Assembly (NCBI RefSeq): GCF_003967355.1
Contig: NZ_BIFH01000014.1
Location: 434,001 to 498,000, forward strand
Length of the DNA stretch: 64,000 bases
Direction: 5' to 3'
From: Embleya hyalina
GTDB lineage: Bacteria > Actinomycetota > Actinomycetes > Streptomycetales > Streptomycetaceae
Positions 28,367 to 62,508 of the stretch are shown piece by piece. Under the pieces are notes generated by a model that made no database searches, had not been told where the DNA came from, and was given only the letters and a program-made list of their open reading frames with translations. The position numbers were made by a program, and so were the translations under genes. The stretch's first letter is position 1, and each line of letters opens with the position of its first letter.

Positions 28367-28740
28367 CAGCCCGTCCGGCGTCTGAGGACGCCCAAGTGGG
28401 CACTGGGGAACGGCAACCGGGTGGCCGACCTTTCAGCCCGTCCGGCGTTTGAGGACGCCCGAGTGGGCACTCGGGAACGGCGACCGGGTGGCGGATCCTT
28501 CAGCCTGTCCGGCGTTTGAGGATGCCCAGTGGGCATTTGCGGGCGGCGACCGGGTGGCCGATCTTTCAGCCCGTCCGGCGTTTGAGGACGCCTGAGTGGG
28601 CACTCGGGAACGGCGACCGGGTGGCGGATCCTTCAGCCTGTCCGGCGTTTGAGGACGCCCGGGTGGGCACTCGCGAACGGCAACCCGGTTCGCCGAACGC
28701 AGCCCACCTCAGCCCGCCCGGCGCTTGAGGGCCCTCAGGG
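28367..28740. repeat. Tandem array of 66-67 bp units, family core CCTCAAACGCCGGACGGGCTG-like
   Basis: Five units begin at 28367, 28434, 28501, 28567 and 28634, with a degenerate sixth at 28710. Each opens with CAGCC(C/T)GTCCGGCGT(T/C)TGAGGA. Several units then carry a perfect hairpin, best seen at 28458-28475 (CCCGAGTG-GG-CACTCGGG). The array fills the 405-base gap between the convergent GbsR/MarR and HNH genes and touches the HNH stop codon. The same core, inverted, recurs at 52844-53313 and 62413-62508. No gene is seen inside. Confidence 0.9.
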
Positions 28741-29451
28741 CGTGCCAGGCTCGATCGGCACGTTGGGACACTGCGCAGCCAGCCGCCGAAGCGTGTCGAG
28801 CTCGGTCGCGTCGACCGCCAAGTCGTACTTGGTCTTCACGGTCACCCAGTCCGTGAGGTACGTACAGCGCGCCCCCTCATACGGCGGCAGCCACGTGCTC
28901 GGGTCCTGATCGGCCTTGGAACGGTTGTACTTCGCCGTCACCGCGACCAGCGCCCGTGGCTGATCGAGGTCGTTGGCGTATGCCTCACGCTGCTTCGAGG
29001 TCCAGGCGGAGGCGCCGGAGTCCCACGCCTCGGCCAACGGCACCATGTGGTCGATGTCCAGGCCGGCCCCGCCGTCGACATAGGCGTCCTCGTAGTAGGA
29101 GTACCAACGGCCGCCGGCGAGCGCGCACTTGGCGCCGATCTCCGGCGGGAGTACGGCCTCGTCGATCAGCACCTCGGCGCGGGTCGTGCAACCGTTCTTG
29201 TCCGCGTCGATCCAGTGCCGGAACGCGGCGCGGTCGTAGCCGGAACGATCCTCCTCCGCGACCCGGAGACGGGCGATCGCGTCCTGCAGCGGGACGCGCG
29301 CGGCCGACGCCGTCGCGTTCCCGGTCGGCGCCGCCACGGCCGTGCCCGGCGTGAAGAGCAGTGCGCCGACGCTCGTTGCCGCGACCACGAGGGAAGCCAT
29401 ACGGCGCCCGGTGGTCCTCGTCCTCGTCACCGTCGTGGGAGTCATCGTCAT
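28735..29451 (-). CDS. Secreted HNH-family nuclease (DUF1524-like)
   Basis: A 238-residue protein with an export signal (twin Arg at GRRMASLVVAATSVGALLF, shortened, about residues 16-34; Ala-x-Ala cleavage near AVAAP). The mature domain has a Cys-containing front (NGCTTRAEVLIDEA), the central LDIDHMVPLAEAWDSGA motif with Asp-His catalytic residues, and the ANDLDQPRALVAV...YNRSKADQDPSTW segment of the HNH/DUF1524 family. Secreted relatives are extracellular DNases of streptomycetes. The start ATG 29451 has a second ATG 6 bases on. The last bases run into the 67-bp repeat array. Confidence 0.85.
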   Translation of the reverse strand: MTMTPTTVTRTRTTGRRMASLVVAATSVGALLFTPGTAVAAPTGNATASAARVPLQDAIARLRVAEEDRSGYDRAAFRHWIDADKNGCTTRAEVLIDEAVLPPEIGAKCALAGGRWYSYYEDAYVDGGAGLDIDHMVPLAEAWDSGASAWTSKQREAYANDLDQPRALVAVTAKYNRSKADQDPSTWLPPYEGARCTYLTDWVTVKTKYDLAVDATELDTLRRLAAQCPNVPIEPGTP

Positions 29452-29624
29452 CGTCTCGCCCCGGAGTCGTCGTGATCAGGTTCGGTCCTGTTGTAGCGAC
29501 TGGCGGGACGGGATCTACGACGACGCGGACCGGGCCACTCGAAAGAGTGGAACCGGCATGGGCGAATCGGCTGTTCGGTAGTGTCGCGCCGTCTCGTCGT
29601 CCGATGCGAACAAGGGATGAGCCG

Positions 29625-30248
29625 ATGAACGACGGTGCCGGATTCGCGGACATATCGCCGACCACCCTCGCCGACCTGCTCGGGCGCGCGCAGGTGATGG
29701 ACATCGGGATCCGGCCGCTGTGGGATTCGATGCCGCGCGTCGCAGGCCCCGCGTTCACCGTGCGGTGTCCGCCGGGGGACAACCTGATGCTGCACGCGGC
29801 CATCCATCGCGCCGGGCCCGGTTCGATCGTCGTGGTCGAATCCGGCGACGTGGACTACGCGTTGGCCGGCGGGAACGTGTGTGCCGTCGCGCGGCGGCGG
29901 GGGATCGCGGCGTTCGTGGCCGACGGGGTGATCCGGGATCTGGCGGAGGTGCGGGAGATGGGCTTCCCGGTATTCGCCCGTGGCGTGATCCCGATCCCGG
30001 GCACGAAGGCGGCCGTCACACCGCTCGATACCCGGGTGCGCTGCGGCGGCGTCGACGTGGACCCCGGCGACATCGTGGTCGCCGACGAGGAGGGCATCGT
30101 GGTCGTCCCGGGCGCGCGACGGAAGCGGGTACTCCTCGACGCCCGACGCCGATCGGCCGCGGAAGCCGCCGAGACCCTCACCGACTGGGAGACGGCCCAC
30201 CGCGCCCGCATCGACGCCCTGCTCACGGCGAACCAGCCGACCGACTGA
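29625..30248 (+). CDS. RraA-family protein
   Basis: A 207-residue protein of the RraA/HMG-aldolase fold: SPTTLADLLGRAQVMD at the N-terminus, GPAFTVRCPPGDNLMLHAA, the GNVCAVARRRGIAAFVADGVIRD core with Gly-x-x-x-Ala-x-x-x-Gly metal-site context (Asp in VADGVIRD), and GGVDVDPGDIVVADEEGIVVVP. Members are metal-dependent aldolases/decarboxylases such as 4-hydroxy-4-methyl-2-oxoglutarate aldolase; E. coli RraA inhibits RNase E. The R-D pair expected for aldolase activity is present (VIRD). ATG 29625 is chosen for AAGGGA 7 bases upstream over ATG 29604. Confidence 0.85.
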   Translation: MNDGAGFADISPTTLADLLGRAQVMDIGIRPLWDSMPRVAGPAFTVRCPPGDNLMLHAAIHRAGPGSIVVVESGDVDYALAGGNVCAVARRRGIAAFVADGVIRDLAEVREMGFPVFARGVIPIPGTKAAVTPLDTRVRCGGVDVDPGDIVVADEEGIVVVPGARRKRVLLDARRRSAAEAAETLTDWETAHRARIDALLTANQPTD

Positions 30249-30439
30249 CCACGTGGCGGCAGGCCGCCTTCATGTCGTGGCGGAGCCGGGACGAGCGAAC
30301 CGATCCCGTCGGAAAACACGCGGTCGACGCCCGGGGCGGGCCGGCCCCGTTCGACCCGGAGCGGATCCCCGACGCTCGGCGCTGCGTCGGGATCCACGGA
30401 ACGGCGCCGCGTCGAGTCCGCGGGCGACGACCGTCTCGC

Positions 30440-30880
30440 TCACCTCGGAGGGTGACCGGCAGGCTGTACGACACGGGGGACGGGCGGCCGGTGTTCGATC
30501 ACCCGGGGTGGTCCGCCGACCACCACTCCTGGGACGGACGCCGGCTCCACGGGTCCGAGTCACCGGGCCCCGGCCCCTCCGCGCCGACCGCCGCGCCGCA
30601 CGCACTCTCGGGTCACTACCGGAGCTACACCCCCTGGCATCCGGTGTCGGCATCGTGCACCGGGCGAAACGCCCGCACACGATCGCCGCGACCGGAGTGG
30701 AAGCGCCCTGCGACGAACCGGAGTTCGTCCCGCTCGACGATGAGACGTTCCGCATCGGAGCCGACCCCCGGTTGCCCAAGCGCCCGACGGCCGGACCCGC
30801 CCTGGACGGCGCGGTGCTCCGAATCGACTTGGACGGGTGCCGCTACCCGCTCTCCTTCCGGGATCCGCCGGAGCCGTGGG
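30440..30880 (+). pseudogene. Frameshifted remnant of a serine beta-lactamase-like hydrolase, C-terminal part
   Basis: In one frame a stretch reads ALSGHYRSYTPWHPV (about 30600-30645). In the next frame it continues VGIVHRAKRPHTIAATGVE...EPEFVPLDDETFRIGADPRLPKR...GAVLRIDLDGCRYPLSF up to about 30870. Together they resemble the C-terminal lipocalin-like part of streptomycete serine hydrolases (GxYRSYxPW, then FR.G.DP..P). A frameshift near 30644 breaks them. Upstream 30249-30440 contains nothing protein-like in any frame, so the catalytic half is missing. Its 3' end runs into the PucR gene. Homology is judged by eye only. Confidence 0.5.
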
Positions 30881-32480
30881 AAGTGCTCGTCCGCAGCTCG
30901 TTCACCCGGAGTTGGAGGTGCGCGAGCAGCATGGCGTCGGCGTCGGCGAAATCCAGCCCGGAGACCTCGCGGATACGGCGCAGCCGATATCGCATGGTGT
31001 TGGGGTGGATGTGCAGGGCCTCCGCCGCGGTGTCGGTGGCTCCCGCCGCGGCGAGATAGGCGGCCAGGGTCGCCGCCAACGGACCGTCCCGGCCCTCCTC
31101 CCGGCGCAGCCGGCGCAGCGCGCCGCCGGCCTCCGGCAGGCCGAGCGCCTCGGTCGCGTCGGCGAGGTGCAGCAACAGCACCGCCAGCGCCATGTCCTCC
31201 ACGGTGCGCACGGCCGGTCCGCGGACGGTCGGATGCCGCAGCGCCCGCAACGCGGCGTCCGCCTGCGCCCGTACGTCGGCGATCCGGCCCACCGATTCGG
31301 CCGGGCCGCCGACGGCGACCACGTAGTCACCGGCCAGTGGGGTCCGCGCGAGGAAGTCGCGGGCCAGGGCGACGGCCGACTCCAGGGCCGTGGCGTGTTC
31401 CGCGGGCCAGGCGGCCAGTACGTACACGACTCCGGTACCCGTCACCAGGGCTGAACGGGGGTGCACCGCCGCCAGAAAGTACTCCAGCGTGTCCGCGAAC
31501 CGGCGCAGCTCGGCGGCGTCCAGCGCGTCGGAGCCCGTGCTCCCGGCCGGCCGCGGGGCCGCGGCCAGGACACAGATCGGGCCGGAGCCCAGCTGGAGCC
31601 GGCTCGCCTCCACCGGGTCGGCCGCCCCGCCGAGTACGGCGGCGGCCAGCTCGCCGCGCTGGCGGCGGGCGTAGCTGGTCTCCGTGCGCAGACCCACCAG
31701 TTGCAGTGCGACCAAGGGCGCGAATTCGCGCAACCGGGCCGTGGCCTCCTCGTCGAGCGGTCCGGTGACGGCGGCCCAGATGTAGCCGAGGACGTCCGAG
31801 CCGGCCCGGACCGCGATGGCCACCCGTGCCAGTCGATCGGCCCCGGTCGCCTCCATGTACACCGGTTCGGTGCCGGCGTGGAGCCGCTCGAACTCCTGAC
31901 GCTCGCGCTGTTCCGCGAGCGTGCGCTGATGCACGGCCCGCCCCAGGATGGTCTCGATCCGCTCGGAGTCGGTCCGGTCCTGCCCGCGCGACCAGGCGAC
32001 CAGCGCGGAGAAGCGGTCCTCGATGGTGACCGGGGCGCCGACGGCCTCGTAGACGGCGTTCGCCAAGGCGAACAGCTCCGCGCCGCTGTCGGCCGAGCGC
32101 ACGCGTGTCCTCGCATCCGCGAGCAGTTGCTCGCGGACCGTCATCGCCACGTGCATCCAGGACGCGTCCCGGTTGACCTCGATGATCGCCGGCATGTCGT
32201 CGGCCGACGGCGGCACCGGAGCCTTCACCGCCAGCACCTCCGCGCCGGCCTGCCGCATCGCCGCGGTCAACTCGCGCAACTCGGCCTCCGTGGTCACGCC
32301 CACCCCCAACACCACGGACCCGGGTCCGAGCCGTGTCGGCGCCCCCGGGGCGTGAATGGCGACGTCGGTGAGCGGCCCGCCGCTGCCGGTCCCCTCCCGA
32401 ACCAGGCGTAGCAGCGCGGGGCCGATGTCGTCCACGAGCCGACGGACAGGCGGAATCCCCCGAGCGTCGGACTCCCGCAT
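30843..32480 (-). CDS. PucR-family transcriptional regulator
   Basis: A 545-residue regulator. An N-terminal purine-catabolism-like/GAF-type region (LTDVAIHAPGAPTRLGPGSVVLGVG, shortened) is followed by a middle GGDEF-like CdaR domain and a C-terminal PucR HTH_30 motif: AAGATDTAAEALHIHPNTMRYRLRRI (shortened; about residues 490-520), the strongest evidence. PucR/CdaR proteins control catabolic genes for purines, amino acids or diacids. ATG 32480 has CCGGGAG upstream. It is divergent from a PLP decarboxylase gene across 138 bases containing the TTGAC-GAT-GTCAA palindrome, so that gene is its likely target. Confidence 0.88.
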   Translation of the reverse strand: MRESDARGIPPVRRLVDDIGPALLRLVREGTGSGGPLTDVAIHAPGAPTRLGPGSVVLGVGVTTEAELRELTAAMRQAGAEVLAVKAPVPPSADDMPAIIEVNRDASWMHVAMTVREQLLADARTRVRSADSGAELFALANAVYEAVGAPVTIEDRFSALVAWSRGQDRTDSERIETILGRAVHQRTLAEQRERQEFERLHAGTEPVYMEATGADRLARVAIAVRAGSDVLGYIWAAVTGPLDEEATARLREFAPLVALQLVGLRTETSYARRQRGELAAAVLGGAADPVEASRLQLGSGPICVLAAAPRPAGSTGSDALDAAELRRFADTLEYFLAAVHPRSALVTGTGVVYVLAAWPAEHATALESAVALARDFLARTPLAGDYVVAVGGPAESVGRIADVRAQADAALRALRHPTVRGPAVRTVEDMALAVLLLHLADATEALGLPEAGGALRRLRREEGRDGPLAATLAAYLAAAGATDTAAEALHIHPNTMRYRLRRIREVSGLDFADADAMLLAHLQLRVNELRTSTSHGSGGSRKESG

Positions 32481-32534
32481 GGTGCACTCCCGGCTCGACG
32501 GACTGTGGTGGGCGTCAAGTTTGGGAGACCCATA

Positions 32535-32547
32535 TTGACGATGTCAA
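32535..32547. promoter_or_regulatory. Palindrome between PucR gene and decarboxylase gene
   Basis: TTGAC-GAT-GTCAA, a perfect 5-base inverted repeat with 3-base spacer, lies in the centre of the 138-base divergent region. It is a candidate PucR-family operator; TTGAC may also serve as a -35 on either strand. Confidence 0.45.
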
Positions 32548-32618
32548 CGATGATCCACGGTGTTCGGAGCGCGAGCATGACGGGAGAGCAGGACGGATCA
32601 CCGGCACGAGGAGCACGG

Positions 32619-41892: not shown

Positions 41893-44649
41893 TCAGCCGG
41901 TCGGCAAGGCACGCACCCTCTCCAGATTCGTTCGCACCAGCGCAATCGTCGGATGGCCTGGGCTCAGCACCCGTTCGCAGTCTCGCAGGGTGCGCTCGAA
42001 CAGCGTGATCGCTCGGCCCGGGTCCCCCGCCTCCGCGTACGTACTCGCGAGGTTGTTGCGAGCCATGAGGGTGTCGGGGCCGTCGTTGCCCAGAACCCGT
42101 TCCCGGTCGGCGAGGGTGCGCTCGAACAGTCGGATCGCACGGCCGAGGTCACCCGACGTCCGGTACGCGTACGCGAGGTTGTTGCGGGACGAGAGTGTGA
42201 GCGGGTGGTCGTTCCCGAGCACCCGTTCACAGCCTTGTAAGGTGCGTTCCAAGAGCGGAATCGCATGGTGCGGATCGTTCGCGTCCTGGTACGAGTCGGC
42301 AAGATTGTTGCGGGCGGTCAGTGTGTCGGGGTGGTCGTCGCCGAGTATCCGTTCGCAATCCTGCAGGACACGTTCGCACAGCGGAATCGCGCGTCCAGGG
42401 TCGTGTGCTTCGCGGTATGCGTTCGCGAGGTTGTTGCGGGCGGCCAGTGTGTCGTGGTGGTGGTCGCCCAGTACCCGTTCCCGGTCGGCGAGAGCGTGCT
42501 CGAACAGTGTGATCGCTCGTGCCGGATCGCCTGCCTCCCGGTATGCGCCCGCGAGGTCGTTGCGGCAGGCCATCGTGTTGGGATGGTCGTTGCCCAGCGC
42601 TCGTTCGTGGTCGGCGAGGGTGCGCTCGAAGAGCCGGATCGCACGGTGGAGGTTGCCCGAATTCCGATACGCGTGAGCGAGGTTGTTGCAGGCGATCAAG
42701 GTGTGTGGGTGGTCGTTGCCCAGCAGTTGTCCGCTGTCTTTCACGGTGCGTTTCAGGAGTGGGATGGCACGCCGCGGGTCGTTCGCCGCTCGGTACGCGT
42801 TCGCGAGGTTGTTGCGGGCGGAAAGTGTGCTCGGGTGGTCGTTGCCCAGTACCCACTCATAGGCCTCCAGAATGCTTTCGTAGAGTGGGATTACCCGGCT
42901 CGGATTCCCCGTTGCCTGATATGCGCCCGCCAGGTTGCCGCGGGCAGCCAGGGTCTGGGGGTCCTCGTTGCCCAGCACTCGTTCACAGTCTTCCAGAACG
43001 CGTTCGTAGAGTGGGATCAACTCGCTCAGAGGGTTCCCGGCCGCTCGATATGCGTCCGCGAGGTTGCCCCGGGTGGCCATGGTGTCGGGGTGGTCGTTGC
43101 CCTGTAGTCGTTCCATCGCGGCGAGAGTGTGTTCATAGAGCGGAATCGCCTGCCCCGGGTTCGCCGCCGCCTGGTATGCGTCGGCGAGGTTGGTGCGGGA
43201 AGCCAGGGTGTAGCGATGGTCGTCGCCCAGCGCCCGCTGCCGGGCGGTGACGGCACGCCGGAAGGTGTGGATGGCGCTGTCCGTCGCGCCTTGTTCCAGG
43301 CGGTAGGCGGCGACGCGGTCGAGGATGCGGGCGGTGTGGGCGGTGTCCTGGTCGGGGGAGTGATGGTGGGTGAGGGTGTCGACGTGCGGCAGGAGGGCTC
43401 GATAGCAGGGCCAGTGCGCCGGATTCTTGGTGTCGTAGGGAAGGGCGAGGGCGAGGAGGACGGTGGCCCCGTCGCGGGCCCGGTCGATGGCCTCCGGCCG
43501 GCGGTGGGGGTCTTCCGGGTCCTGGGTGCGGGCCAGGGATTGGACCAGGCGGTGGATGGTCAGGGTGCCGTCGTGGTTGTCGGTGATCATGCCGTGGGCG
43601 ACGAGTCGGCCGATGGCGGTGGTGAGTTCGGGTGGTTCGGCCAACGGGGCGAGGAGGTCCCTCGGGATGTGGTCGGGGGCGTACCAGGCCAGGATGCGCA
43701 GGATTTCGCCGGCGAGTGGGGTTTCGGCGAGGCGGTCCAGGGTGACGCGCCAGATTCGGGCGATGGTGCGGGTCGAGTCGCCGCCTTCGGCGGTGGCCGC
43801 GAACATCGTGGCGGGCCACCGCGCGAGCATGTCGAGGTAGGCGGTCGGGGTGGTGCCCGTTTCGGCGCAGTAGGCGGCGGCCTGTTCGACGGCCAGGGCG
43901 AGGTGGCCGAGTTCTTCGCACAGGGCGTCGGTGCCGTGCGTGCCTCGCGGCCCGTGGTGGGTGAGGATGCGGGTGAACAGGGCCGTCGCGTCGATGGGTT
44001 CGAGGACTTCGAGGCGGATGGTCCTCGCGTGGTGGTGCCAACCCGTGGCGCGACGGGTGGTGATCAGGACGCGACCGCCGGGGGTGCGGTCGACGAGTGG
44101 ATGGATGTGGGACGGGTTCTCCACGTTGTCGAGGACGAGCAGCCACTCGTGGTTGTCGGTGAGCCAGCGGATGGCACGTTCCGTTTGCGACTCGGCGGGC
44201 AGCTGGGTCACACCGGGTTGTAGGGCTCGGGCGAGGGCGGCCAGGTCCGCGTCGACCCCCGCGGGGGTGTCGGCGGTGATCCACCATCGGACCGGTTCGC
44301 GGCGGCGGGCGGCCCAGTGTGCGGCGAGGGCGGACTTGCCGACGCCGCCGAGGCCGTGTACCGCGTGCACCACCACCTCGCCCGCCTTGCCGAACGCGGC
44401 CTCCAGCGCCGCGAGTTCGTGCTCACGACCGACGAACAGATCGGATCGGGGGATGTTCGAGACGCCGCTTCCGGGCGCGTCGTGCGGGATCGGCGCGTAT
44501 GCCTCCGGGGGTAGCGCGTGTTCGGCGTGGATCGCGATCGAGTCGATGACGTTGCCGCCGGCTGCGATCGCGCCCCGGGTGGCGGACGTGCTCGGGGCCG
44601 GGACGGGTGCGTTGGGGGTGCGCCGTCGCCTTCGGCGTTCGGGCTTCAC
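41893..44649 (-). CDS. STAND NTPase: NB-ARC domain with 11 tetratricopeptide repeats
   Basis: A 918-residue protein. A basic start (VKPERRRRRR) and a GAIAAGGNV segment are followed by SDLFVGREHELAALEAAF and an NB-ARC P-loop, GLGGVGKSALAAHWA (about residues 97-110), a Walker B-like WLLVLDNVEN and sensor VLITTR. A helical arm follows. Residues about 465-915 contain 11 repeats of 42 residues, each close to AI.L.ERTL.D.ERVLGNDHP.TL.ARNNLA.AYR. No effector domain is seen at either end. GTG 44649 overlaps the stop of the upstream membrane protein (GTGA). STAND proteins act as ligand-triggered switches in signalling or anti-phage defence; the role here is not known. Confidence 0.88.
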   Translation of the reverse strand: MKPERRRRRRTPNAPVPAPSTSATRGAIAAGGNVIDSIAIHAEHALPPEAYAPIPHDAPGSGVSNIPRSDLFVGREHELAALEAAFGKAGEVVVHAVHGLGGVGKSALAAHWAARRREPVRWWITADTPAGVDADLAALARALQPGVTQLPAESQTERAIRWLTDNHEWLLVLDNVENPSHIHPLVDRTPGGRVLITTRRATGWHHHARTIRLEVLEPIDATALFTRILTHHGPRGTHGTDALCEELGHLALAVEQAAAYCAETGTTPTAYLDMLARWPATMFAATAEGGDSTRTIARIWRVTLDRLAETPLAGEILRILAWYAPDHIPRDLLAPLAEPPELTTAIGRLVAHGMITDNHDGTLTIHRLVQSLARTQDPEDPHRRPEAIDRARDGATVLLALALPYDTKNPAHWPCYRALLPHVDTLTHHHSPDQDTAHTARILDRVAAYRLEQGATDSAIHTFRRAVTARQRALGDDHRYTLASRTNLADAYQAAANPGQAIPLYEHTLAAMERLQGNDHPDTMATRGNLADAYRAAGNPLSELIPLYERVLEDCERVLGNEDPQTLAARGNLAGAYQATGNPSRVIPLYESILEAYEWVLGNDHPSTLSARNNLANAYRAANDPRRAIPLLKRTVKDSGQLLGNDHPHTLIACNNLAHAYRNSGNLHRAIRLFERTLADHERALGNDHPNTMACRNDLAGAYREAGDPARAITLFEHALADRERVLGDHHHDTLAARNNLANAYREAHDPGRAIPLCERVLQDCERILGDDHPDTLTARNNLADSYQDANDPHHAIPLLERTLQGCERVLGNDHPLTLSSRNNLAYAYRTSGDLGRAIRLFERTLADRERVLGNDGPDTLMARNNLASTYAEAGDPGRAITLFERTLRDCERVLSPGHPTIALVRTNLERVRALPTG
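41900..43285 (-). repeat. 126-bp coding tandem repeat (TPR units) in STAND gene
   Basis: Eleven consecutive 126-base units encode the 42-residue tetratricopeptide repeats. Neighbouring units share runs of identical codons (for example GGCAACGACCACCC-type stretches), pointing to recent unequal recombination. Copy number may vary between strains. Confidence 0.8.
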
Positions 44650-51183: not shown

Positions 51184-52611
51184 TCAGTGACCCGGCATCT
51201 GCTCCAAGAGGTCGCGCACCTCCGGCAGATCGCTCCAATGCTGGGTCAGACGACGGCGCAGGCCCAGTAGTTCCCGATTTGTGGTCGCGGTGCCCAGACC
51301 GGCGGCCTCGTGGATGACCGGGGCCGCGGTGATCACCGCCGCGTCGGGTCGGCCGGCGCACGCGAGCGCGTCGGCCAGCCGTACGGTCAGCAACACCCGG
51401 GCGGGGCGCAGCGGAACGGGCAGCAGGTCCAACGCGGCCTCCACCGACTGGACCGCAGAGCGGGCCGAGGCGAGATCGCCGGTACGCGCGGCCAGATCGC
51501 GCAGCGCGCCGCCGATGGTGGCCTCCATGCGCAGTCGGCCGGCCAGTCCGGTCAACCACGGTGCCTCGGCGCGGTCGCGTTCGTCGAACCGGTTGATCTG
51601 CCGATGCGCGGTGGCGATCTCCTGGCGACACTCGCCGATGTCGCCGCCGAGTGCGTGGCCGCGGGCCTGGTAGAGCTTGGCGAGTGTGGTGATCCAGGCC
51701 CGGCCGGTGTCCACCGCCTCCAGCGCGCGGGCGTAGGCCAGTGCGGCCGTCGCGTCGCCGTCGAGGCGGGCCAGCGAGCACACGTCGCCGAGCAGCGAGG
51801 CGCGGGCACCCGGACTCTCGCAGACGTCCGCCCAGTTGAGGCCGCGGTCGTACCAGGCCATGCCGATCACGCTCTGGCCCTGCTGCATCCGGAAACGCCC
51901 GGCGAGTTGGGCGTAGTCGGCGGCCAGACGCAGCTGCGCGTGCGGCGAACGGCCCTGCGCGTTCAGGGATTCGGCCCAGCTGACGATGCGGCGCAGCACG
52001 TACTCGACGGAGCCGACCAGGCCGGTGGTGGTGCCGCCGTGCAGGCCGGCCTGGGTGTAGCCGCCGAGCAGGGCGGTGAGTACGTGGACCACGTCGGGGT
52101 CGACGCCGGTCGGGTTGTTGCCGTCGATGCCGGCGAGGATGGTGAGCGCGTCGGCGTACGGCGGGACCTCGCACTCGTGGCAGCCGTCCTTGCCGTGCAG
52201 GGGGCAGGGCAGGCCGTGGTAGGGCAGCCGATCGGGCCAGAACCGGTCGGCCAGGGGGGCGAGTCCGGCCGGCGCCTCGCCGCCGGGTATCACCGAGAAG
52301 TGCGTGCGGTGCAGCGCGGGCGGCGGGATGGCTCGGCTGGTCAGGAGGGCGGACAGGTCGCCGCCGGTGTCGAGGAGATCGTCGAGCCGGCGCGGCAGAC
52401 CGGCCGGCGGCTCGCGCAGGCCCGCCTCCAGCTTGCTGATCAGGCTGTGGTGATAGCCGACGCGCAGCCCGAGCTGCTGCTGGGTCATCCCGGCGAGGCG
52501 GCGCCGGGTCCGCAGCGTGCGGCCGAACTCCGCCCACAACGGTGTGGACGCGACCTTTAGAGGTGTGGACGCGACCTGTGTGGTGACGGGTGCGTTCGGG
52601 AGCCTGTTCAC
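51184..52611 (-). CDS. Helix-turn-helix regulator with TPR-like C-terminal region
   Basis: A 475-residue protein. The XRE helix-turn-helix is FGRTLRTRRRLAGMTQQQLGLRVGYHHSLISKLEAG (shortened; about residues 31-66). A central Cys/His segment (CPLHGKDGCHECEVPPY) may bind metal. The remaining 300 residues are alpha-helical with TPR-like periodicity (LAYARALEAVDTG, RLADALACAG). Streptomycetes have many such XRE-plus-helical-repeat regulators; ligand and targets are unknown. GTG 52611 is chosen because GGGGAGG lies 6-12 bases upstream. A 16-base perfect direct repeat sits just after the start codon (52541-52577). Confidence 0.82.
   Translation of the reverse strand: MNRLPNAPVTTQVASTPLKVASTPLWAEFGRTLRTRRRLAGMTQQQLGLRVGYHHSLISKLEAGLREPPAGLPRRLDDLLDTGGDLSALLTSRAIPPPALHRTHFSVIPGGEAPAGLAPLADRFWPDRLPYHGLPCPLHGKDGCHECEVPPYADALTILAGIDGNNPTGVDPDVVHVLTALLGGYTQAGLHGGTTTGLVGSVEYVLRRIVSWAESLNAQGRSPHAQLRLAADYAQLAGRFRMQQGQSVIGMAWYDRGLNWADVCESPGARASLLGDVCSLARLDGDATAALAYARALEAVDTGRAWITTLAKLYQARGHALGGDIGECRQEIATAHRQINRFDERDRAEAPWLTGLAGRLRMEATIGGALRDLAARTGDLASARSAVQSVEAALDLLPVPLRPARVLLTVRLADALACAGRPDAAVITAAPVIHEAAGLGTATTNRELLGLRRRLTQHWSDLPEVRDLLEQMPGH
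52541..52577. repeat. 16-base direct repeat with 21-base period inside regulator 5' coding region
   Basis: GGTGTGGACGCGACCT occurs at 52541-52556 and again at 52562-52577. On the coding strand each copy encodes Val-Ala-Ser-Thr-Pro. The 21-base period equals two helical turns, so the copies could also act as operator half-sites for autoregulation. Confidence 0.7.
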
Positions 52612-53468
52612 GTTCGTCCTCCCCGAGGTAACTCCGGATGGTCGACGGTTGGTCACTGCCCGGAGCAGGGTGACAGACGCGAGTGCGAGTTGTCTGCGAT
52701 GGAACGAGGCATTCCGCTTTTGGCGTGTGGTGGGGGTGGGGTCGGGTGGGGGGTGGGTGGCACGGGACGCGGTGTGACATATCACCCCGGGTTGTCGGGG
52801 GCGGGGTCGGTGGGGGCGTGTGACCGGGGCGGGTGGCGAGGTTGGCCTCGAACGCCGGCCGGGCTGATTTGGCCTCGTGCGGATTTGGCGTTGCGCGCGG
52901 GTTGGGCTGTTGGCCTCAAGTGCCGGCCGGGCTGATTTGGCCTCGTGCGCCGGTTGGGCTGGTGTGGCCTCACGTGCCGGTTGGGCCGGGTGGCCTCGAA
53001 CGCCGGCCGGGCTGATTGGGGCTCATGCGCCGGCCGGGTTGGTCCGGCCTCCTGTGTCGGTTGGGCCGGGTGGCCTCGAACGCCGGCCGGGCTGATTCGG
53101 CCTCGTGCCGATTTGGCCTCAAACGCTGGCCGGGCTGATGTGGCCTCACGTGCCGGTTGGGCCCGGTGGCCTCGAACGCCGGCCGGGCTGTTTGGGGCTC
53201 ATGCGCCGGCCGGGTTGGTCCGGCCTCGTGTGTCGGTTGGGCCGGGTGGCCTCAAACGCCGGCCGGGCTGATTTGGTCTCGCGCCGATTTGGCCTCGAAC
53301 GCCGGCCGGGCTGTTTGGGTTGGTTGGGTCGAGTGGGCCAGCGGCTTTTGGATTCGGTTGGGTCGGGTGGGCTCGCGGGTTGGTTGGGTTCGATTGGGGT
53401 GGGTGGTTCGCGGGTTGGTTGGGGTTGGTGGGGGTGGGCTGGAATGGGGCTTGTGGTTGGTGGGGTGG
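52612..53468. other. 857-base intergenic region dominated by GC-rich tandem repeats
   Basis: The region between the HxlR gene's 3' end and the regulator's start. The first 230 bases hold the regulator's upstream sequence (GC-poor patch near 52700-52800 with CATTCCGCTTTTGG). The rest is the repeat array described separately and a G/T-rich tail (GGTTGGTTGGG) to 53468. Open frames through it on the plus strand translate only the repeat. No gene supported. Confidence 0.75.
52844..53313. repeat. Tandem repeat array, GGCCTC(G/A)AACGCCGGCCGGGCTG family
   Basis: At least eight copies of the core are visible: 52844, 52912, 52992, 53071, 53115, 53167, 53250 and 53290. Related but shifted variants (GCCGGTTGGGC, CATGCGCCGGCCGGGTTG) stand between them. 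A longer unit of about 177 bases repeats twice (start near 52974 and 53151). The core differs by one base from that of the other two arrays. Confidence 0.88.
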
Positions 53469-53963
53469 TTAGGCCGTGGGGGTGGCTTTTGGGGGGAGGT
53501 TTGTCAGGAGGCCGTCCCTCGCGCCCGGGCCCGGGGTTGCCTTCAGGGTTTCGGGGGTCAGGGGTTCCCGGCAGGCGGAGCAGATGTGGATCGCGGTCGT
53601 GGGGTGGCCGCAGGGGGTGTGGGTGACGATCACCGGGGGGCCGTCGGGGGCGGCCCACTCGTCGCCCCATTGGCGCATGGCGTTGAGTACCGGCCACAGG
53701 GCGCGGCCCTTGTCGGTCAGGCGGTAGTCGTAGCGGACCGGCTTGTCCTGGTAGGCCGCGCGTTCGAGGATGCCGTGCTCGATCAGGTGCTCCAGGCGCT
53801 GGGTGAGCACGTTGCGCGAGATGCCGAGCCGGTCGTGGAAGTCGTCGAAGCGGCTCACGCCGAAGAAGGCGTCCCGCACGATCAGCATCGTCCACCACTC
53901 GCCGCCCACCTCGAGGAACTGGGCGACGGAGCAGTGCATCTCCTGGAAGCTCTTGCGGCGCAT
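53469..53963 (-). CDS. HxlR-family transcriptional regulator
   Basis: A 164-residue winged-helix protein. The HxlR pattern is complete: SVAQFLEVGGEWWTMLIVRDAFFGVSRFDDF (shortened), LGISRNVLTQRLEHLIEHGILER and YRLTDKGRALWPVLNAMRQWGDEW. The last 40 residues have a CxxC pair (HICSACREPL), a possible zinc site. ATG 53963 is preferred: the longer start (53990) would overlap the putative -10. It is divergent from an MFS exporter across a palindrome, so it is probably its repressor, responding to a small molecule or redox signal. Confidence 0.9.
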   Translation of the reverse strand: MRRKSFQEMHCSVAQFLEVGGEWWTMLIVRDAFFGVSRFDDFHDRLGISRNVLTQRLEHLIEHGILERAAYQDKPVRYDYRLTDKGRALWPVLNAMRQWGDEWAAPDGPPVIVTHTPCGHPTTAIHICSACREPLTPETLKATPGPGARDGLLTNLPPKATPTA

Positions 53964-54014
53964 GGCGTCAGTGTAATGGGTGGGTTGCATGATTGTACTT
54001 AGTTAGTTGCTTTA

Positions 54015-57431: not shown

Positions 57432-57560
57432 ATGGACCACACGACGTATCACGGCACGGTGGGCGGTCGCGATCGCCCGCTCCACCTCGACCTGTTCGAC
57501 CCCGGGCGGCCCCGGAGCCTGTCGCCGACGGCGGACGCTTCGCACGAGTCAGCGGCATGA
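57432..57560 (+). CDS. Possible 42-residue peptide coupled to DUF5984 gene
   Basis: ATG 57432 opens MDHTTYHGTVGGRDRPLHL and ends ...DASHESAA at TGA 57558, sharing ATGA with the DUF5984 start at 57557. The composition is mixed and protein-like, and the overlap mirrors real operons in this window. No clear ribosome site precedes it, and the family is unknown, so it may not be translated. Confidence 0.35.
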   Translation: MDHTTYHGTVGGRDRPLHLDLFDPGRPRSLSPTADASHESAA

Positions 57561-58351
57561 CGGTGCGGTTTCGGTTCGTGTTGCGGCCCGTGGCGGCGGT
57601 GCGGCCATGGGGGGACGAGGCGCCCCGGTTGGGCTGGTTCATCCTGACGGACGGCTGGTACTGGATCGAGGCGGGCGGCCACGAACTGCTGCGCTACGCG
57701 GACTCGGCGGGGGCCGGGGCGTTCGCCGATCCGGACGCGGTGCGCGAACCACCGTACGTCGACTATCACGTGGTCCGGCTCTGGGAGGACCTGGTCGACC
57801 TGATGCCCCGGATCATGGAGCCCGTACCGCCGGACCTGGCCGACTTCGTGCCGGATCGGCGGCTCCGGGCCGAGGGGCCGGCCGCGCCCGGTGTCGAGGC
57901 GGCGATCTCCTGGGCCGAGGGGCACGTGTTGGACATGGGCCACCTGCGGGCGGCACCGGACATCCGGTTCCGACGCGCGGTGTCGGGCGGGGGCGACACG
58001 ATGACGATCACCTGGGCCCACGCGCCCGACCCGGACGACGACGACCCGATCCGGTTCACCGCGCCGGCCACCGGTCGGGTCACCGTGCCCACGGAGGACT
58101 TCACCGCCGCCGTGACGGCCTTCGACCGCGAGCTGTTCACCACGATGGAGGAACGGGTCGCGGCCCTGGAGGCATCCGGCCCACCCCCGGGCGTCGAACT
58201 CGACACGATCCACCTCCGCCGCGAACAACACGACCGCGCCACCTGGTTGCCCCGAGCCCTGAACCGCACCCCCGACACCGACTGGCCCGCGGTCCGCTCC
58301 GGCGCCGAACTCCTCGGCCGATCGACCAGGAGGCCGGCGAACCGGACCTGA
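57557..58351 (+). CDS. DUF5984 family protein
   Basis: A 264-residue protein recognised by RFRFVLRPVAAVRPWGDEAPRLGWFILTDGWYWIEAGG (shortened; residues 3-40), YVDYHVVRLWEDLVDLMP and the C-terminal part ITWAHAPDPDDDDPIRFTAPATGRVTVPTEDFTAAVTAFDREL (shortened). The family is common in actinomycetes and has no known function. It is usually cytoplasmic; here there are no membrane segments or signal peptide. It starts at ATG 57557. The gene downstream, encoding an AbiEii-like nucleotidyltransferase, follows after 78 bases in the same direction. Confidence 0.85.
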   Translation: MTVRFRFVLRPVAAVRPWGDEAPRLGWFILTDGWYWIEAGGHELLRYADSAGAGAFADPDAVREPPYVDYHVVRLWEDLVDLMPRIMEPVPPDLADFVPDRRLRAEGPAAPGVEAAISWAEGHVLDMGHLRAAPDIRFRRAVSGGGDTMTITWAHAPDPDDDDPIRFTAPATGRVTVPTEDFTAAVTAFDRELFTTMEERVAALEASGPPPGVELDTIHLRREQHDRATWLPRALNRTPDTDWPAVRSGAELLGRSTRRPANRT

Positions 58352-58429
58352 GACCGACCGCGCCCGAGGCCGGTCGCTCGACGCACGCCGGCGGTTGCCC
58401 CGCTGCCCGCCGACAAGGAGGATCGTGCG

Positions 58430-59530
58430 ATGCCCGTTCCGCCACCCCACCTCGACCCCGACTCGGCGACACGATGGCGGCACGCCCGCGCCCGGGCCGT
58501 GGACCACCTCCTGACGGCCGTGGCCGGCTCCAGCCGGGTCGACGAACTCGTACTGCGCGGGAGCGTGTTGCTCAAGGCGTGGTACGGCCCGGCGGCCCGC
58601 GAGCCGGGCGACCTCGACTTCGTGGTGACGACGAAGGGGTGGGGACCGGAGGACGGCCGCACCGACCGGATGTTCGCCGAGATCGCGCGTCGCGCCGAGG
58701 AGTCGTCCGGGATGGATGAGTCCGGCGTACGGGTGGTCGCGACCCGGGCGCTGGACGAAACGCTCCGGGCCTACGACCGCGCGCCCGGCCGCCGACTCGG
58801 ACTCCCGTGGCGGGCCGAAGGGTTGCCGGGCGGCACGGTGTACCTCGACTTCGTCTTCGGCGAACGGTTGCCGAGTGAGCCGGAATTGGTCGAGATCCCG
58901 CGCTCCGACGGGACCGGTGCACATCTGCTGGTCGGCGCCACCCCCGAACAGTCGTTGGCCTGGAAGCTGTTGTGGTTGGTCGAGGACGACCCCCCGCGCC
59001 CGCGGGATCTCTACGACGCGGTATTGCTCGCGGAGCACGTGCCGTTGCCCGTCCGGCTGCTGCGGGACACGTTCATGGTGTTCGATCCCGGTTACGGCGG
59101 ACACCCGTTCACCGTGGATCTGCTCCGCCCGGATCGGGTGAAGCCGTTCGAACCGGACCACGGTCACCCCGAGTCGATCGGCGGAGAGCTGTCGGTTCGG
59201 TTGGTGCGGGCGTTGGCGCCGACCTTCGCAGCGCGAGGCGGGGCCGGCGCGAGTGGGTACACCCGGGCCGTGCGGCGGATGGGTTCCTGGATCGAGAAGT
59301 GTCGGGCGCTGCGCGGGGACCCGCGGGCGCTGCTGGATGTGATCACGGCCGACTCGTGGCACCTGGACTCGGCCCTGGTGGTGTACCGCGAGGTGATGGG
59401 GTCGAGAACCTGCGACCTGGTCGAGGCCGCGCGGGTGGTGACCGGCCACTGGGACGGGCGGCCGGCGCAGGTCGGACACGAGCGGTGGCATCCGTATGTG
59501 GTCGAGGAGGCCTTCGAGCGGTTGGGCTAG
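58430..59530 (+). CDS. AbiEii/AbiGii-type nucleotidyltransferase, orphan
   Basis: A 366-residue protein of the AbiEii toxin superfamily. It shows [13 protein letters not shown] (G-S motif), PGDLDFVVT (catalytic Asp-x-Asp type: D-L-D), and the distal [16 protein letters not shown]...[11 protein letters not shown] block with Lys and Arg-Asp-Leu-Tyr-Asp. Type IV toxin-antitoxin AbiE systems use AbiEi as antitoxin, but no AbiEi-like gene is adjacent. A clear AGGAGG precedes ATG 58430. The stop overlaps the stop of the convergent acyl-CoA synthetase gene (CTAG at 59527-59530). It could be a stand-alone tRNA-modifying or defence toxin. Confidence 0.82.
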
Positions 59531-61200
59531 GCGTGGGGTGGGGGTTGGGTGAGGAGTTCGAGGGAGCGTTCGCGCATTTCGATTTTGCGGATCTTGCCGG
59601 TCACCGTCATGGGGAACGCGTCGACCAGGTGGACGTAGCGCGGGATCTTGTAGTGGGCCAGCCGGCCGGCGCAGAACTCGCGGAGGGCGTCGGCGGTCAA
59701 CTCCGGGGCGCCCGGGCGGAGTTTGATCCAGGCCATCAGTTCCTCGCCGTAGCGGGCGTCCGGGACGCCGACGACCTGGACGTCCTCGACGTCCGGGTGC
59801 CCGTACAGGAACTCCTCGATCTCGCGCGGGTATACGTTCTCGCCGCCGCGGATCACCATGTCCTTGATCCGGCCGACGATGGAGACGTAGCCGTCCGCGT
59901 CCATGGTCGCCAGGTCGCCGGTGTGCATCCAGCCGTCGGCGTCGATCACCTCGGCGGTGCGCTCGGGGTCGCGCCAGTAGCCCAGCATCACCGAGTAGCC
60001 GCGCGTACAGAACTCGCCGGGGGAGCCCTCGGGGACGGTCGCGCCCGTGGTCGGGTCGACCACCTTGATCTCCAGGTGCGGGTGGACCCGGCCGACCGTA
60101 CCGACCCGGCGCTCCAGCGAGTCGTCGCGACGGGTCTGGGTGGACACCGGCGAGGTCTCGGTCATCCCGTAGCAGATGGTCACCTCGGTCATGCCCATCC
60201 GGTCGATCACCCGCTTCATCACCTCCACCGGACACGGTGAACCGGCCATCACGCCGGTGCGCAGCGAGGAGAGGTCGTACTTGCCCGCCTCGAAGTCGGG
60301 CAGGGCGAGTTCGGCGATGAACATCGTCGGCACGCCGTACAGGACCGTGCAGCGCTCCTCGTGCACGGCGCGCAGCGTGGCGGCCGGGTCGAACAGCGCG
60401 GCCGGGATCACCATGCACGCGCCGTGGCTGGTCGCGCCGAGATTGCCCATCACCATGCCGAAGCAGTGGTAGAAGGGCACCGGCAGGCACACCCGGTCGG
60501 CGGCGGTCCAGCCCTGGATCTCGGCGACCAGGAAGCCGTTGCCGAGGATGTTGCGGTGGGAGAGGGTGGCGCCCTTCGGGAAGCCGGTGGTGCCGGAGGT
60601 GTACTGGATGTTGATCGGATCCTCGGGACGCAGCGTGGCCTCGCGGGCGCGCAACCGGTCGAGCGAGACGTCGGCGCCCTCGGCGAGCAGGGCCGGCCAG
60701 TCCGGGGTGTCGATGTGGACGACACGTTCCAGGTCGGGGCAGGTGGGGCGGACCTCGGCGACCATCGCGGGGTAGTCGCTGGTCTTCACGCGCGAGGCGG
60801 CGATCAGGAGCCTGGTGCCGGATTGGGCGAGCGCGTATTCGATCTCGTGCACCCGGTAGGCCGGGTTGAGGTTGACCAGGATCGCGCCGACGCGGGCGGT
60901 GGCGTACTGGACGAGGGTCCATTCGGCGCAGTTGGGCGACCAGATGCCGACGCGGTCGCCCGCCTCGATGCCGACGCCGATCAGGGCGCGGGCGAGGTTG
61001 TCGACGGCGGTGTCGAACTCCGCGTAGGTCCAGCGCCGGTCGCTCGCGCATTCGACGAGGGCGTCGTGGTCCGGGTACGCGGCGGCGATCCGGGCCAGGT
61101 TGGCGCCGATGGTCTCGTGGGGCAGCTGCGGCGTGCGCTCTCCCTGGCGGAAGGACGGGGGGATTTCGGCCTGTGGCGGGGCGGGCACGGGGGTGGTCAT
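59527..61200 (-). CDS. Fatty-acyl-CoA synthetase/AMP-binding ligase
   Basis: A 557-residue ANL-superfamily ligase. Motif A3 is [11 protein letters not shown] (about residues 195-205), the adenine motif [10 protein letters not shown]7-like [15 protein letters not shown], the hinge [20 protein letters not shown] and the A10 lysine in [12 protein letters not shown] (Lys near 540). Full-length with complete motifs, it activates medium or long fatty acids with ATP and CoA. Streptomycetes annotate this type as FadD35-like. ATG 61200. It is divergent from a GAF-LuxR regulator across 261 bases that are G-rich. Confidence 0.93.
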
Positions 61201-61461
61201 CGCGGGTCACCTGCCTGGACGGGGTGGGTGGGGACTCGTGGTGCGGGGGTGCCGTGGGCGCGTGTGGTGGGTGGCGGGGCCGGGTTTTCGGGGTGGGGCG
61301 CCTGTGTGTGGTCGCGAGGGTAGGCGGGGGTGGGCGGGGGCGGCGAGCGGAGTACCCCCGAATGGGGGTGATGCCGGGCCGGGCTCGGCAGTACGGTGCC
61401 CGGGCGCGGTGTGGGTGTGCCCCGGATGGGTACGACGCGAGCCTGAGTGTGGGGAGGGGCC
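61201..61461. other. Divergent intergenic region between acyl-CoA synthetase and LuxR genes
   Basis: 261 bases, unusually G-rich on the plus strand with runs of GGGG and GTGGGTGG. The G-rich strand is coding for neither gene, and no clear -35/-10 pair or palindrome stands out. It should contain the promoters of both genes. Confidence 0.5.
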
Positions 61462-62334
61462 ATGGGCGGACCGGCGGGCTCGGTCGAGGATCCGTTGGCG
61501 CGGGCCGTCGAGCGGTTTCGGGCGCGGACCGGGGTGGACGTGGCGTTCGCCGGGCCGTGTCCGAATACGGCGGACCGGCTGGTGATCTCGTACCTGAGCG
61601 GCACCTCGACGCGCGTGCTGGCCGGGTTGACGGTGGTCGCCGGGAGCGGGGTCGGCGGCAAGGCGATCGCCACGCGGCGGCCGGTGCGGGTGGTGGACTA
61701 TGTCGCGGCGTCGGCGATCAGCCACGAGTACGACCGGGCGGTCACGACGGAGGGGGTGCGGGCGGTCTTCGCGGTGCCGGTGCCTGCCGGCGGGCGGGGT
61801 GTGGTGGCGGCGGTGCTGTATGGGGCGTTGCGGCGGCCGTCGGACTTCGGGGACGGCATTTTGACCACGGCCTGTGACGCCGCGCGGGATGTGGGGCACG
61901 AGATCGCGGTGGCGCGTGAGGTCGAGCAACGGATGGCGCGGGCGGCGGAGTTGCCGGGGTGGGCGGCGCTGGAGATCCGGCTGGCCCATGCGGACCTGCT
62001 GGCGCTGGCGGGGGCGGCCGCGGTCGACGATCCGGTGCTGGGGGAGCGGCTGCGGGCGGTGTGTGGGCGGTTGGCGCGGACGGCTGCCGCCGCCGCTGTC
62101 GCCGGTGGGGAGGGCGGGGGCGCGGTGCGGGCGGCGGGGCCGCGGTTGACGGTGCGGGAGATGGATGTGTTGGCCCTGGTGGGGGTGGGGCGGACCAACG
62201 CGGAGGTGGCGCAGGCGCTGGGGGTGGGGGCGGAGACGGTGAAGAGCTACCTGCGGTCCGCGATGCGCAAGCTCGGGGCGCACAACCGGGTGGAGGCGGT
62301 CGTCGCCGCGCGTGCGGCGGGCCTGTTGCCGTAG
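61462..62334 (+). CDS. GAF-domain LuxR-family transcriptional regulator
   Basis: A 290-residue regulator. Residues about 25-160 form a GAF-type sensor (RVLAGLTVVAGSGVGGKAIATRRPVRVVDYV, shortened; AVFAVPVPAGGRGVVAAVLYGALRR). A C-terminal LuxR helix-turn-helix (about 225-285) reads LTVREMDVLALVGVGRTNAEVAQALGVGAETVKSYLRSAMRKL (shortened). GGGGAGGGG precedes ATG 61462. It is divergent from the acyl-CoA synthetase gene, a common arrangement in streptomycetes, so it probably controls it in response to a small ligand. Confidence 0.9.
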   Translation: MGGPAGSVEDPLARAVERFRARTGVDVAFAGPCPNTADRLVISYLSGTSTRVLAGLTVVAGSGVGGKAIATRRPVRVVDYVAASAISHEYDRAVTTEGVRAVFAVPVPAGGRGVVAAVLYGALRRPSDFGDGILTTACDAARDVGHEIAVAREVEQRMARAAELPGWAALEIRLAHADLLALAGAAAVDDPVLGERLRAVCGRLARTAAAAAVAGGEGGGAVRAAGPRLTVREMDVLALVGVGRTNAEVAQALGVGAETVKSYLRSAMRKLGAHNRVEAVVAARAAGLLP

Positions 62335-62412
62335 CTCGTGCGGGTGGCCGGGGGTGGCCGGGGGTGGTCGCGGGCCCTCACCCGACGGAGGCCGGCCTCT
62401 CGCCCCGACCGT

Positions 62413-62508
62413 CCTCAAACGCCGGACGGGCTGGATTTGCCCGGTCCTGTGTGTGGGTTGCGGTCGTGCTTTGGTCGGGTTTTTTGTCCTCAAACGCCGG
62501 ACGGGCTG
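62413..62508. repeat. Two copies of the CCTCAAACGCCGGACGGGCTG element
   Basis: The 21-base core is exact at 62413-62433 and 62488-62508, 75 bases apart and in the same orientation. It is the reverse complement of the core at 28.4 kb. TTTTTTGT precedes the second copy. The second copy supplies the stop codon of the toxin remnant on the minus strand. Confidence 0.92.

What the first reader, a model, noticed from the sequence alone, without database searches (positions are those of the whole stretch)
28367..62508. One 21-base core unites three separate intergenic repeat arrays
CCTCAAACGCCGG(A/C)CGGGCTG occurs in five to six copies at 28.4 kb (inverted), at least eight at 52.8-53.3 kb and two at 62.4 kb. 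Two arrays lie between convergent genes; the 53 kb array lies downstream of the HxlR gene and upstream of the next regulator. The unit length differs (67, about 177 and 75 bases), so the core has been amplified separately with different flanks. I recall similar GC-rich cores as common intergenic repeats in streptomycetes, but a function (terminator, REP-like element or small mobile element) is not known to me.
Basis: partly seen in the sequence, partly recalled or inferred. Interest (0 to 1): 0.72.

Follow-up and report, generated by a model that had tools for sequence, protein, structure and literature searches.

The report
Streptomycete REP-like hairpin repeat arrays
The three repeat clusters belong to one family of short DNA hairpins, found only in streptomycete relatives among the genomes searched, that sits just behind genes, resembles the REP repeats of other bacteria, and is strung here into tandem arrays which, in the one sister genome tested, mostly point the way the chromosome is copied.

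Summary
Confirmed: 16 cores with at most 3 mismatches in the window, 0.03 expected; 98 exact copies in the genome, 0 for the reversed control. The core is a small hairpin: a 4-5 bp stem changes on both sides yet stays paired (GTCC/GGAC, GGCC/GGCC, CGCC/GGCG, CTCC/GGAG) round a conserved 9-base loop, TCAAACGCC, with a GGGCTG tail. Of 54 own intergenic arrays 31 are convergent, 23 tandem, 0 divergent. In Streptomyces the hairpin often ends a three-hairpin element or forms inverted pairs. A 19-base form occurs in 11 of 16 family genomes and 0 of 181 others. In 27 arrays shared with a sister species cores differ by 7%, flanks by 40%. There, orientation flips at dnaA: 36 of 44 arrays co-directed with replication. 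The genus shows no Y1/RAYT match. Best reading: an untagged REP-like family, amplified head-to-tail, probably through the single-stranded lagging-strand template (inferred). Folding gives little support for terminators in the window arrays; inverted pairs elsewhere could be strong ones.

The parts
28357..28730 (-). array 1: six core copies (28367, 28434, 28501, 28567, 28634, 28710), 67-bp unit, between convergent MarR (+) and GmrSD_C (-) genes
   Evidence: same place in G002 with six copies at 71-76 bp spacing
52846..53313 (+). array 2: eight core copies with at most 3 mismatches (52846, 52914, 52994, 53074, 53117, 53170, 53250, 53293) plus two with 4 (53021, 53197); mosaic spacing
53314..53480 (+). 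G/T-rich tract continuing beyond array 2, without cores
   Evidence: sequence; array spacers in general about 72% G+T on the core strand
62413..62508 (+). array 3: two exact core copies, 75 bp apart, 78 bp behind the stop codon of a LuxR-type gene
62410..62433 (+). example of the hairpin: CGTCC-TCAAACGCC-GGACG, then GGCTG (the tail GGGCTG, whose first G makes the fifth pair)
   Evidence: sequence; pairing deduced
27835..28329 (+). MarR-type regulator whose stop codon precedes array 1
   Evidence: MarR_2, 3.3e-09
28735..29451 (-). gene with a GmrSD_C domain, convergent to it
   Evidence: 1.8e-11
51184..52785 (-). HTH_31 (XRE-type) regulator; the true start is probably further in than that of this longest ORF
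53469..53990 (-). HxlR-type regulator; array 2 lies downstream of it
   Evidence: 1.2e-24
61447..62334 (+). LuxR/GerE-type regulator before array 3
   Evidence: 1e-15

Best explanation
The arrays are members of an untagged REP-like family (repetitive extragenic palindromes) of the Streptomycetaceae. The unit is a small hairpin: a 4-5 bp stem whose sequence can change if both sides change, a conserved 9-base loop TCAAACGCC, and a GGGCTG tail. Shown: the hairpin by covariation; the 3'-side, non-promoter placement; core conservation against fast flanks; array positions shared between two species; orientation that switches at dnaA in the one assembly that could be tested. Inferred: the strand that carries the core forms the hairpin when it is exposed as the single-stranded lagging-strand template, and copies spread and tandem arrays grow there by hairpin-provoked slippage, template switching, or a single-strand nuclease acting in trans. 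Selection removes copies from genes and promoters, leaving them in 3' intergenic regions. There some copies, above all inverted pairs, may serve as transcript-end hairpins.
For: Enrichment: 98 exact copies against 0 in the reversed control. Stem covariation with the stem left free: perfect 4-bp stems in 187 of 292 (own), 180 of 244 (G002) and 163 of 264 (Streptomyces) loop matches, against means of 63, 71 and 90 after re-dealing partners. Loop conservation with the loop left free. The base opposite G15 is T or C in 93% (own) and 95% (G002) of copies with a perfect stem, although spacers hold about 48% T+C. Placement: own 31 convergent, 23 tandem, 0 divergent of 54 arrays; G002 30, 13, 1 of 44 arrays; Streptomyces 48, 43, 6 of 97 cores placed between called genes (p values). 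Orientation in G002: 36 of 44 co-directed with replication, 25 of 30 among convergent sites (p = 0.0003), Fisher p = 5e-5 for the two sides of dnaA. Co-directed arrays are longer (one-sided p = 0.011). Core 7% against flank 40% mismatch, core lower in 27 of 27 shared arrays; 26 of 27 keep orientation, 20 of 27 differ in copy number.
Against: No PF01797 (Y1) match in the four genomes of the genus, so no known REP mobiliser was found there. The replication bias rests on one assembly (G002); it was not tested in the window's own genome, whose contigs are unplaced. Single copies in five Streptomyces-like genomes show only 47 against 31 (p = 0.09). Array orientation also leans to the sense strand of the neighbouring gene (tandem 16 against 8 and 7 against 3; convergent, nearer the sense stop in 17 of 23 and 20 of 27), so transcription is a partial confounder. 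The 4-5 bp stem is weak and does not stand out in the predicted folds of the window arrays. RNAalifold found almost no covariation in the Streptomyces alignment (-0.02, 2 of 9 pairs with a change on both sides); those sequences had been chosen by the exact core. In Streptomyces, one-mismatch stems do not favour the core strand (G-T 4, A-C 9).
Confidence: 0.55

Rival explanations
1. Transcript-end elements kept by selection: RNA hairpins in 3' UTRs that end transcription or block 3' exonucleases; arrays are back-up copies.
For: Single-orientation arrays in convergent gaps start a median 48 (own) and 50 (G002) bases behind the stop codon of the sense gene, and nearer to it than to the opposing gene in 17 of 23 and 20 of 27 cases. 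The two inverted pairs folded, both between convergent genes (L155, L233), are very stable (z -9.4 and -10.0). One terminator-like site (62461-62477) lies between the two cores of array 3 (1 found, 0.4 expected). One-mismatch stems are G-T on the core strand more often than A-C in the own genome and G002 (12:4 and 9:2, other 20 and 12). Short palindromic transcripts in 3' UTRs are reported for S. coelicolor (PMC4681348, passages).
Against: The five window stretches folded are no more stable than shuffled sequence or only slightly so (z -0.48, 0.04, -1.66, 0.43, -0.87), and no terminator-like site falls on a core. Streptomyces tandem sites are 18 sense against 25 antisense, and there A-C exceeds G-T (9:4). 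Array 2 is antisense to both neighbours. 75 of 101 family genomes searched lack the exact core.
Confidence: 0.3
2. Double-stranded binding sites for a chromosome protein (gyrase, a nucleoid protein or a regulator), the stem being two half-sites.
For: Palindromic arms at fixed spacing; arrays; conservation of core over flanks.
Against: The arms change sequence together while the asymmetric loop stays fixed, which suits a hairpin better than a dimer's half-sites; no such site is known to me.
Confidence: 0.1
3. A miniature element moved by an IS200/IS605-type Y1 transposase now or recently present.
For: Hairpin with a conserved loop; dispersed matches of about 50-95 bases to one Streptomyces element at 80-96% identity in relatives (capped list); orientation towards the lagging-strand template in G002.
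Against: No PF01797 match in the four genomes of the genus, three of which hold 52-98 exact copies. Of the 19 genomes (three of the genus among them), 4 of 13 with exact cores and 2 of 6 without have a match (core counts). No core with up to 4 mismatches lies in the four 3.4-kb loci fetched around such genes.
Confidence: 0.05

Closest known systems
REP / BIME elements of enterobacteria and pseudomonads (GTAG-tagged REPs, thought to be moved by RAYTs)
   Same: Short covarying hairpin, many copies, convergent and tandem sites but hardly divergent ones, inverted pairs, uneven numbers between related species (Di Nocera et al. 2013, PMC3733652; abstract, outline and passages seen)
   Different: No GTAG tag in the flank consensus, no Y1 match in the genus, a 9-base conserved loop on a 4-5 bp stem; [quoted passage not shown]
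CGTC-tagged REPs
   Same: No associated transposase; downstream of genes; inverted dimers occur
   Different: CGTC REPs have 8-9 bp stems, 4-5 base loops and an unpaired CGTC tag (PMC3733652); here CGTC, where present, is part of the stem, and same-orientation neighbours outnumber inverted ones even in the Streptomyces loci (45 against 31). The words Streptomyces and Actinobacteria do not occur in that paper's main text
Untagged REP-like families of M. tuberculosis, D. radiodurans, Bordetella, Brucella, Cyanobacteria (mentioned in PMC3733652)
   Same: REP-like repeats without a conserved terminal motif
   Different: Not compared by sequence here; no Streptomycetaceae family is named in the passages read
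Bidirectional transcript 3'-end positions of Streptomyces clavuligerus (PMC8269248, passages)
   Same: Facing transcripts that end within less than 60 bp of each other on opposite strands
   Different: No link to this repeat could be tested; supplementary tables not available
Mobile/repeat sequence candidates (MRSC) of a 50-genome ncRNA survey (PMC11109978, passages)
   Same: Covarying stems in many copies per genome
   Different: The passages seen describe only MRSC-65-2 (a single long stem with UYCCGG repeats, diverse phyla); whether a Streptomyces candidate equals this element is unknown because supplements could not be read

Membership tests
REP-like repeats (broad sense) | short imperfect palindrome in many intergenic copies | tested here: met
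   98 exact copies against 0 control; paired stems
REP-like repeats (broad sense) | placed between convergent or tandem genes, hardly divergent ones | tested here: met
   0 of 54, 1 of 44 and 6 of 97 divergent (own gene caller)
REP-like repeats (broad sense) | inverted dimers | tested here: met
   Streptomyces: 31 opposite neighbours within 150 bp, 28 of them with tails facing, against 45 same-orientation ones; own genome 6 opposite against 191 same
GTAG REP / REPtron | GTAG unpaired tag at one end | tested here: not met
   flank consensus shows none
GTAG REP / REPtron | RAYT (Y1_Tnp) gene flanked by the repeat | tested here: not met
   no PF01797 match in G000-G003; no core in four Y1 loci of other genomes
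CGTC REP | unpaired CGTC tag, 8-9 bp stem, 4-5 base loop | tested here: not met
   4-5 bp stem and 9-base loop
Intrinsic terminator | stable stem followed by a run of U | tested here: not met
   window arrays: no site on a core; fold z from -1.66 to +0.43; one T-run hairpin lies between the two cores of array 3
Intrinsic terminator | RNA 3' ends at the site | not testable with these tools
   no RNA data
Rfam family | match above the gathering score | tested here: not met
   0 in the window; in 6 Streptomyces loci only matches below the gathering score or to a group II intron away from the core

The most novel reading that the evidence does not exclude
A replication-polar hairpin repeat: without any Y1 transposase, an unknown activity recognises the fixed loop on the lagging-strand template and amplifies the unit head-to-tail, so that array orientation reads out replication direction along the chromosome.
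Probability: 0.2. Interest if true: 0.72.

Novelty: new variant of a known kind. Interest (0 to 1): 0.5.

Why it matters
REP elements are described mainly from Proteobacteria, and the best known ones are linked to a Y1 transposase. A family of the same habit in Streptomycetaceae, with no Y1 match in a genus where three of four genomes hold 52-98 exact copies, makes the question 'what spreads REPs that have no RAYT' directly testable. The switch of orientation at dnaA, if it holds in further genomes, ties array growth to replication. The arrays are also fast copy-number markers: 20 of 27 shared arrays differ in copy number between two species with 95% identical flanking genes. If the inverted pairs end transcripts, they would give a simple two-way terminator for Streptomyces engineering.

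Tried and rejected
Chance or base composition: rejected. Phage origin: no exact match in viral contigs. RAYT/Y1 as current mobiliser: no match in the genus, no cores in four Y1 loci. Known RNA family: none in Rfam (a microRNA model overlapped an inverted pair in L155 at 33.9 bits against a cut-off of 90, taken as chance). Pseudoknot between loop CAAAC and a downstream GTTTG: loop variants do not go with matching partners. Intrinsic terminators in the window arrays: little support. Annotated gene context from Embleya plasmid records: no features on the stretches. RNAalifold on 60 of 68 composite Streptomyces elements (68 of 114 loci passed my filter) gave 9 pairs and a covariation term of -0.02; it missed the middle hairpin, whose loop length varies, so that hairpin was tested without alignment (127 of 156 flanks with a perfect stem of at least 4, against a mean of 46.7 in 20 shuffles, 47 distinct stems).

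Clean empty site: of 30 loci, one search placed 10 orthologous intergenic regions (the query's own L239 among them); L239, L241 and L250 hold a core, L242, L245, L246, L248, L251, L252 and L262 do not, but the sequences differ too much for an exact insertion point. Six loci were skipped for orientation and 14 lacked one flank. In G001 and G003 the homologues of the genes beside array 1 are not adjacent (5.9 kb and about 44 kb apart), so absence there is not a clean empty site.

Limits. Gene calls come from my own codon-usage caller, not from annotation; it called array 3 tandem although a minus-strand ORF may make it convergent; of 257 copies with at most 3 mismatches 254 were placed and 1 lay in a called gene; of 128 cores 25 lay at locus edges and 6 inside called genes and were left out; the G002 arrays are those listed (first 100 of 242 places); three listed sites at 6.42-6.49 Mb (all plus strand) and five on contigs 2 and 3 were not used; an array with five copies each way was counted as co-directed; each own copy was compared without gaps with its most similar G002 copy, so the flank figure includes shifts of register, and only cores with at most 4 mismatches could enter; both widen the contrast; the spacer figure includes run-out behind the last copy. 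Copies within an array, and arrays shared by two species, are not independent.
Full report
What is there. In the whole genome the exact core occurs 98 times and the reversed control 0 times. In the window plus 40 stretches of up to 20 kb around the other exact copies there are 280 copies with at most 4 mismatches. The other three genomes of the genus hold 10, 79 and 52 exact copies. Two Embleya records are among the plasmid-collection matches to the repeat and are 84-86% identical to parts of the window, so the genome is probably an Embleya (inference).

The core is a hairpin. The base before the core and base 14 of the core change together: T with A, or G with C. To leave the stem free I searched for the loop TC[AG]A[AG]CGCC alone. 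A perfect 4-bp stem flanks it in 187 of 292 places in the own loci, 180 of 244 in G002 and 163 of 264 in Streptomyces loci; re-dealing the 3' arms among places gives means of 63, 71 and 90. All three sets had been fetched around exact cores, which favours the two commonest stems, and copies within an array are related. Stem forms seen: GTCC/GGAC, GGCC/GGCC, CGCC/GGCG, CTCC/GGAG, GCCC/GGGC. Searching by stem and tail instead, with the loop left free, TCAAACGCC and TCAAGCGCC dominate; in the own set each loop position is 77-90% identical except the fifth, where A and G alternate. A fifth pair is kept as C-G or T-G: the outer base is T or C in 93% (own) and 95% (G002) of copies with a perfect stem, whereas spacers hold about 48% T+C. 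Stems with one mismatch are G-T on the core strand 12 times, A-C 4, other 20 (own); 9, 2, 12 (G002); but 4, 9, 27 in Streptomyces.

In Streptomyces the core is often part of a larger unit. Many show a three-hairpin element: CTGGGGGC-TGC-GCCCCCAG, a linker ACCCCC, a second hairpin of changing sequence, then the core hairpin (68 of 114 loci passed my filter for the first hairpin). The second hairpin has a perfect stem of at least 4 bp in 127 of 156 distinct flanks, 46.7 in shuffles, with 47 distinct stems. BLAST of one such locus against 61 genomes returned dispersed matches of about 50-95 bases, at 80-96% identity, on a capped list. In the Streptomyces loci neighbours within 150 bp are same-oriented 45 times and opposite 31 times; of the 31, 28 are '+ then -' (tails facing), most often 27-28 bp from start to start. 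Among the 55 listed of 167 places of S. olivoreticuli there are 10 close opposite pairs, all '+ then -'. The two such pairs that I folded form long stems (z -9.4 and -10.0). In the own genome the arrays are mostly head-to-tail: 191 same-orientation neighbours against 6 opposite (all '+ then -'), down to a 26-bp unit.

Where it lies. My gene calls place the own arrays in 31 convergent, 23 tandem and 0 divergent gaps of 54; all gaps in the same DNA: 121, 345 and 129 (p = 2.6e-9 for convergent, 3e-6 for divergent). G002: 30, 13 and 1 of 44 against 62, 135 and 69. Streptomyces cores: 48, 43 and 6 of 97 against 99, 280 and 132. In convergent gaps the arrays of one orientation start a median 48 (own) and 50 (G002) bases behind the stop codon of the gene read in the same direction, and that stop is the nearer one in 17 of 23 and 20 of 27 cases (p = 0.035 and 0.019); tandem gaps are 16 sense against 8 antisense and 7 against 3. 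Streptomyces tandem gaps show no such lean (18 sense, 25 antisense).

Orientation and replication. dnaA of G002 lies at 3.333 Mb of a 7.0 Mb contig. Left of it 22 of 26 arrays carry the core mainly on the minus strand (one tie counted here), right of it 14 of 18 on the plus strand: 36 of 44 co-directed with replication (p = 2.5e-5; 0.0007 against the 57% leading-strand coding share of the same DNA; Fisher 5e-5). Among convergent gaps, where gene direction cancels out, 25 of 30 are co-directed (p = 0.0003). In this orientation the core strand is the lagging-strand template (established replication geometry). Co-directed arrays are longer (one-sided p = 0.011). Single copies in five Streptomyces-like genomes give 47 co-directed and 31 not (p = 0.09); for two of them only the listed places could be used (20 of 27 and 55 of 167), and a sixth, G101 with 61 copies, printed no places. 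The bias therefore rests on one assembly. It was not tested in the window's own genome, but 26 of 27 shared arrays keep their orientation. Array spacers on the core strand average 72% G+T with 4% A in 25 co-directed G002 arrays and 59% in four opposite ones; other intergenic DNA has 52-54% on the leading strand.

Conservation. Of 59 own array regions (up to 4 mismatches), 27 could be paired with a fetched G002 array through both flanking genes (mean identity 95.5%); the other 32 were not tested further, because only part of the G002 sites had been fetched. In all 27 the core differs less than its flanks: means 7% and 40%, the flank figure being inflated by shifts of register. 20 of 27 differ in copy number. 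Array 1 has six copies in both species, at 66-76 and 71-76 bp spacing. Inside 34 periodic runs the core also varies less than the spacer in all 34. So the core is either under selection or repeatedly copied, while spacers and copy numbers turn over.

Spread. The exact core was found in 26 of 101 genomes of the family, in 4 of 17 genera, patchily within genera. Over the class, 11 of 16 family genomes and 0 of 181 others match a 19-base form. No PF01797 match is found in the four genomes of the genus. Of the 19 genomes, three of the genus among them, 6 have one: 4 of 13 with exact cores and 2 of 6 without. No match in viral contigs or, above the gathering score, in Rfam for the element.

Reading. 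The anatomy and placement are those of REP elements as described by Di Nocera et al. 2013 (PMC3733652; abstract, outline and passages seen): covarying stems, uneven numbers between species, convergent and tandem sites, inverted dimers. The GTAG and CGTC tags, the CGTC-type long stems and the transposase link are not met, so it is REP-like and untagged, not a member of those superfamilies. Transposases of the IS200/IS605 group act on the lagging-strand template (PMC6006769, passages seen); the orientation found here would fit a single-strand process of that kind, but the enzyme was not found. I therefore infer hairpin-driven amplification on the lagging-strand template, with selection shaping placement, at moderate confidence. 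Transcript-end function remains a serious rival for inverted pairs and less so for the window arrays, whose folds are not clearly better than shuffled sequence (z -0.48, 0.04, -1.66, 0.43, -0.87).

Literature. Full-text searches for the core and its 11-19 base parts found 1 paper and 19 papers, none of which concerns Streptomyces by title or the abstract start shown. Searches for Streptomyces or actinobacterial REP, stem-loop, terminator or intergenic repeats listed no title that names this family; some searches listed only 20 of 511, 20 of 225 and 15 of 61 papers. The library holds open-licence papers only and supplements could not be read, so a description elsewhere is possible.

Noticed in passing
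window 53314-53480: An unusually G/T-rich stretch continues behind array 2 without cores; G/T richness of the core strand is general in these arrays and unexplained (possible G-quadruplexes or strand-specific mutation).
   Followed up: partly
window 41965-43230: About ten 126-bp repeats at about 70% matches inside what looks like coding sequence, perhaps tetratricopeptide-like repeats.
   Followed up: no
window 20937-21558: A 312-bp unit repeated twice at 80% matches.
   Followed up: no
L167 498-2331: Group II intron matches in Rfam in a Streptomyces locus that also holds an inverted core pair some 4.6 kb away.
   Followed up: no
L271, L273 (G001 contig 110): The homologues of the two genes beside array 1 lie 5.9 kb apart in G001, with no core in the two fetched loci, which cover about half of that gap; array sites may be rearrangement points.
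   Followed up: partly
L093, L105, L107, L169: A related repeat with stem CTCC/GGAG and the same loop follows the element in inverted orientation in these Streptomyces loci.
   Followed up: partly
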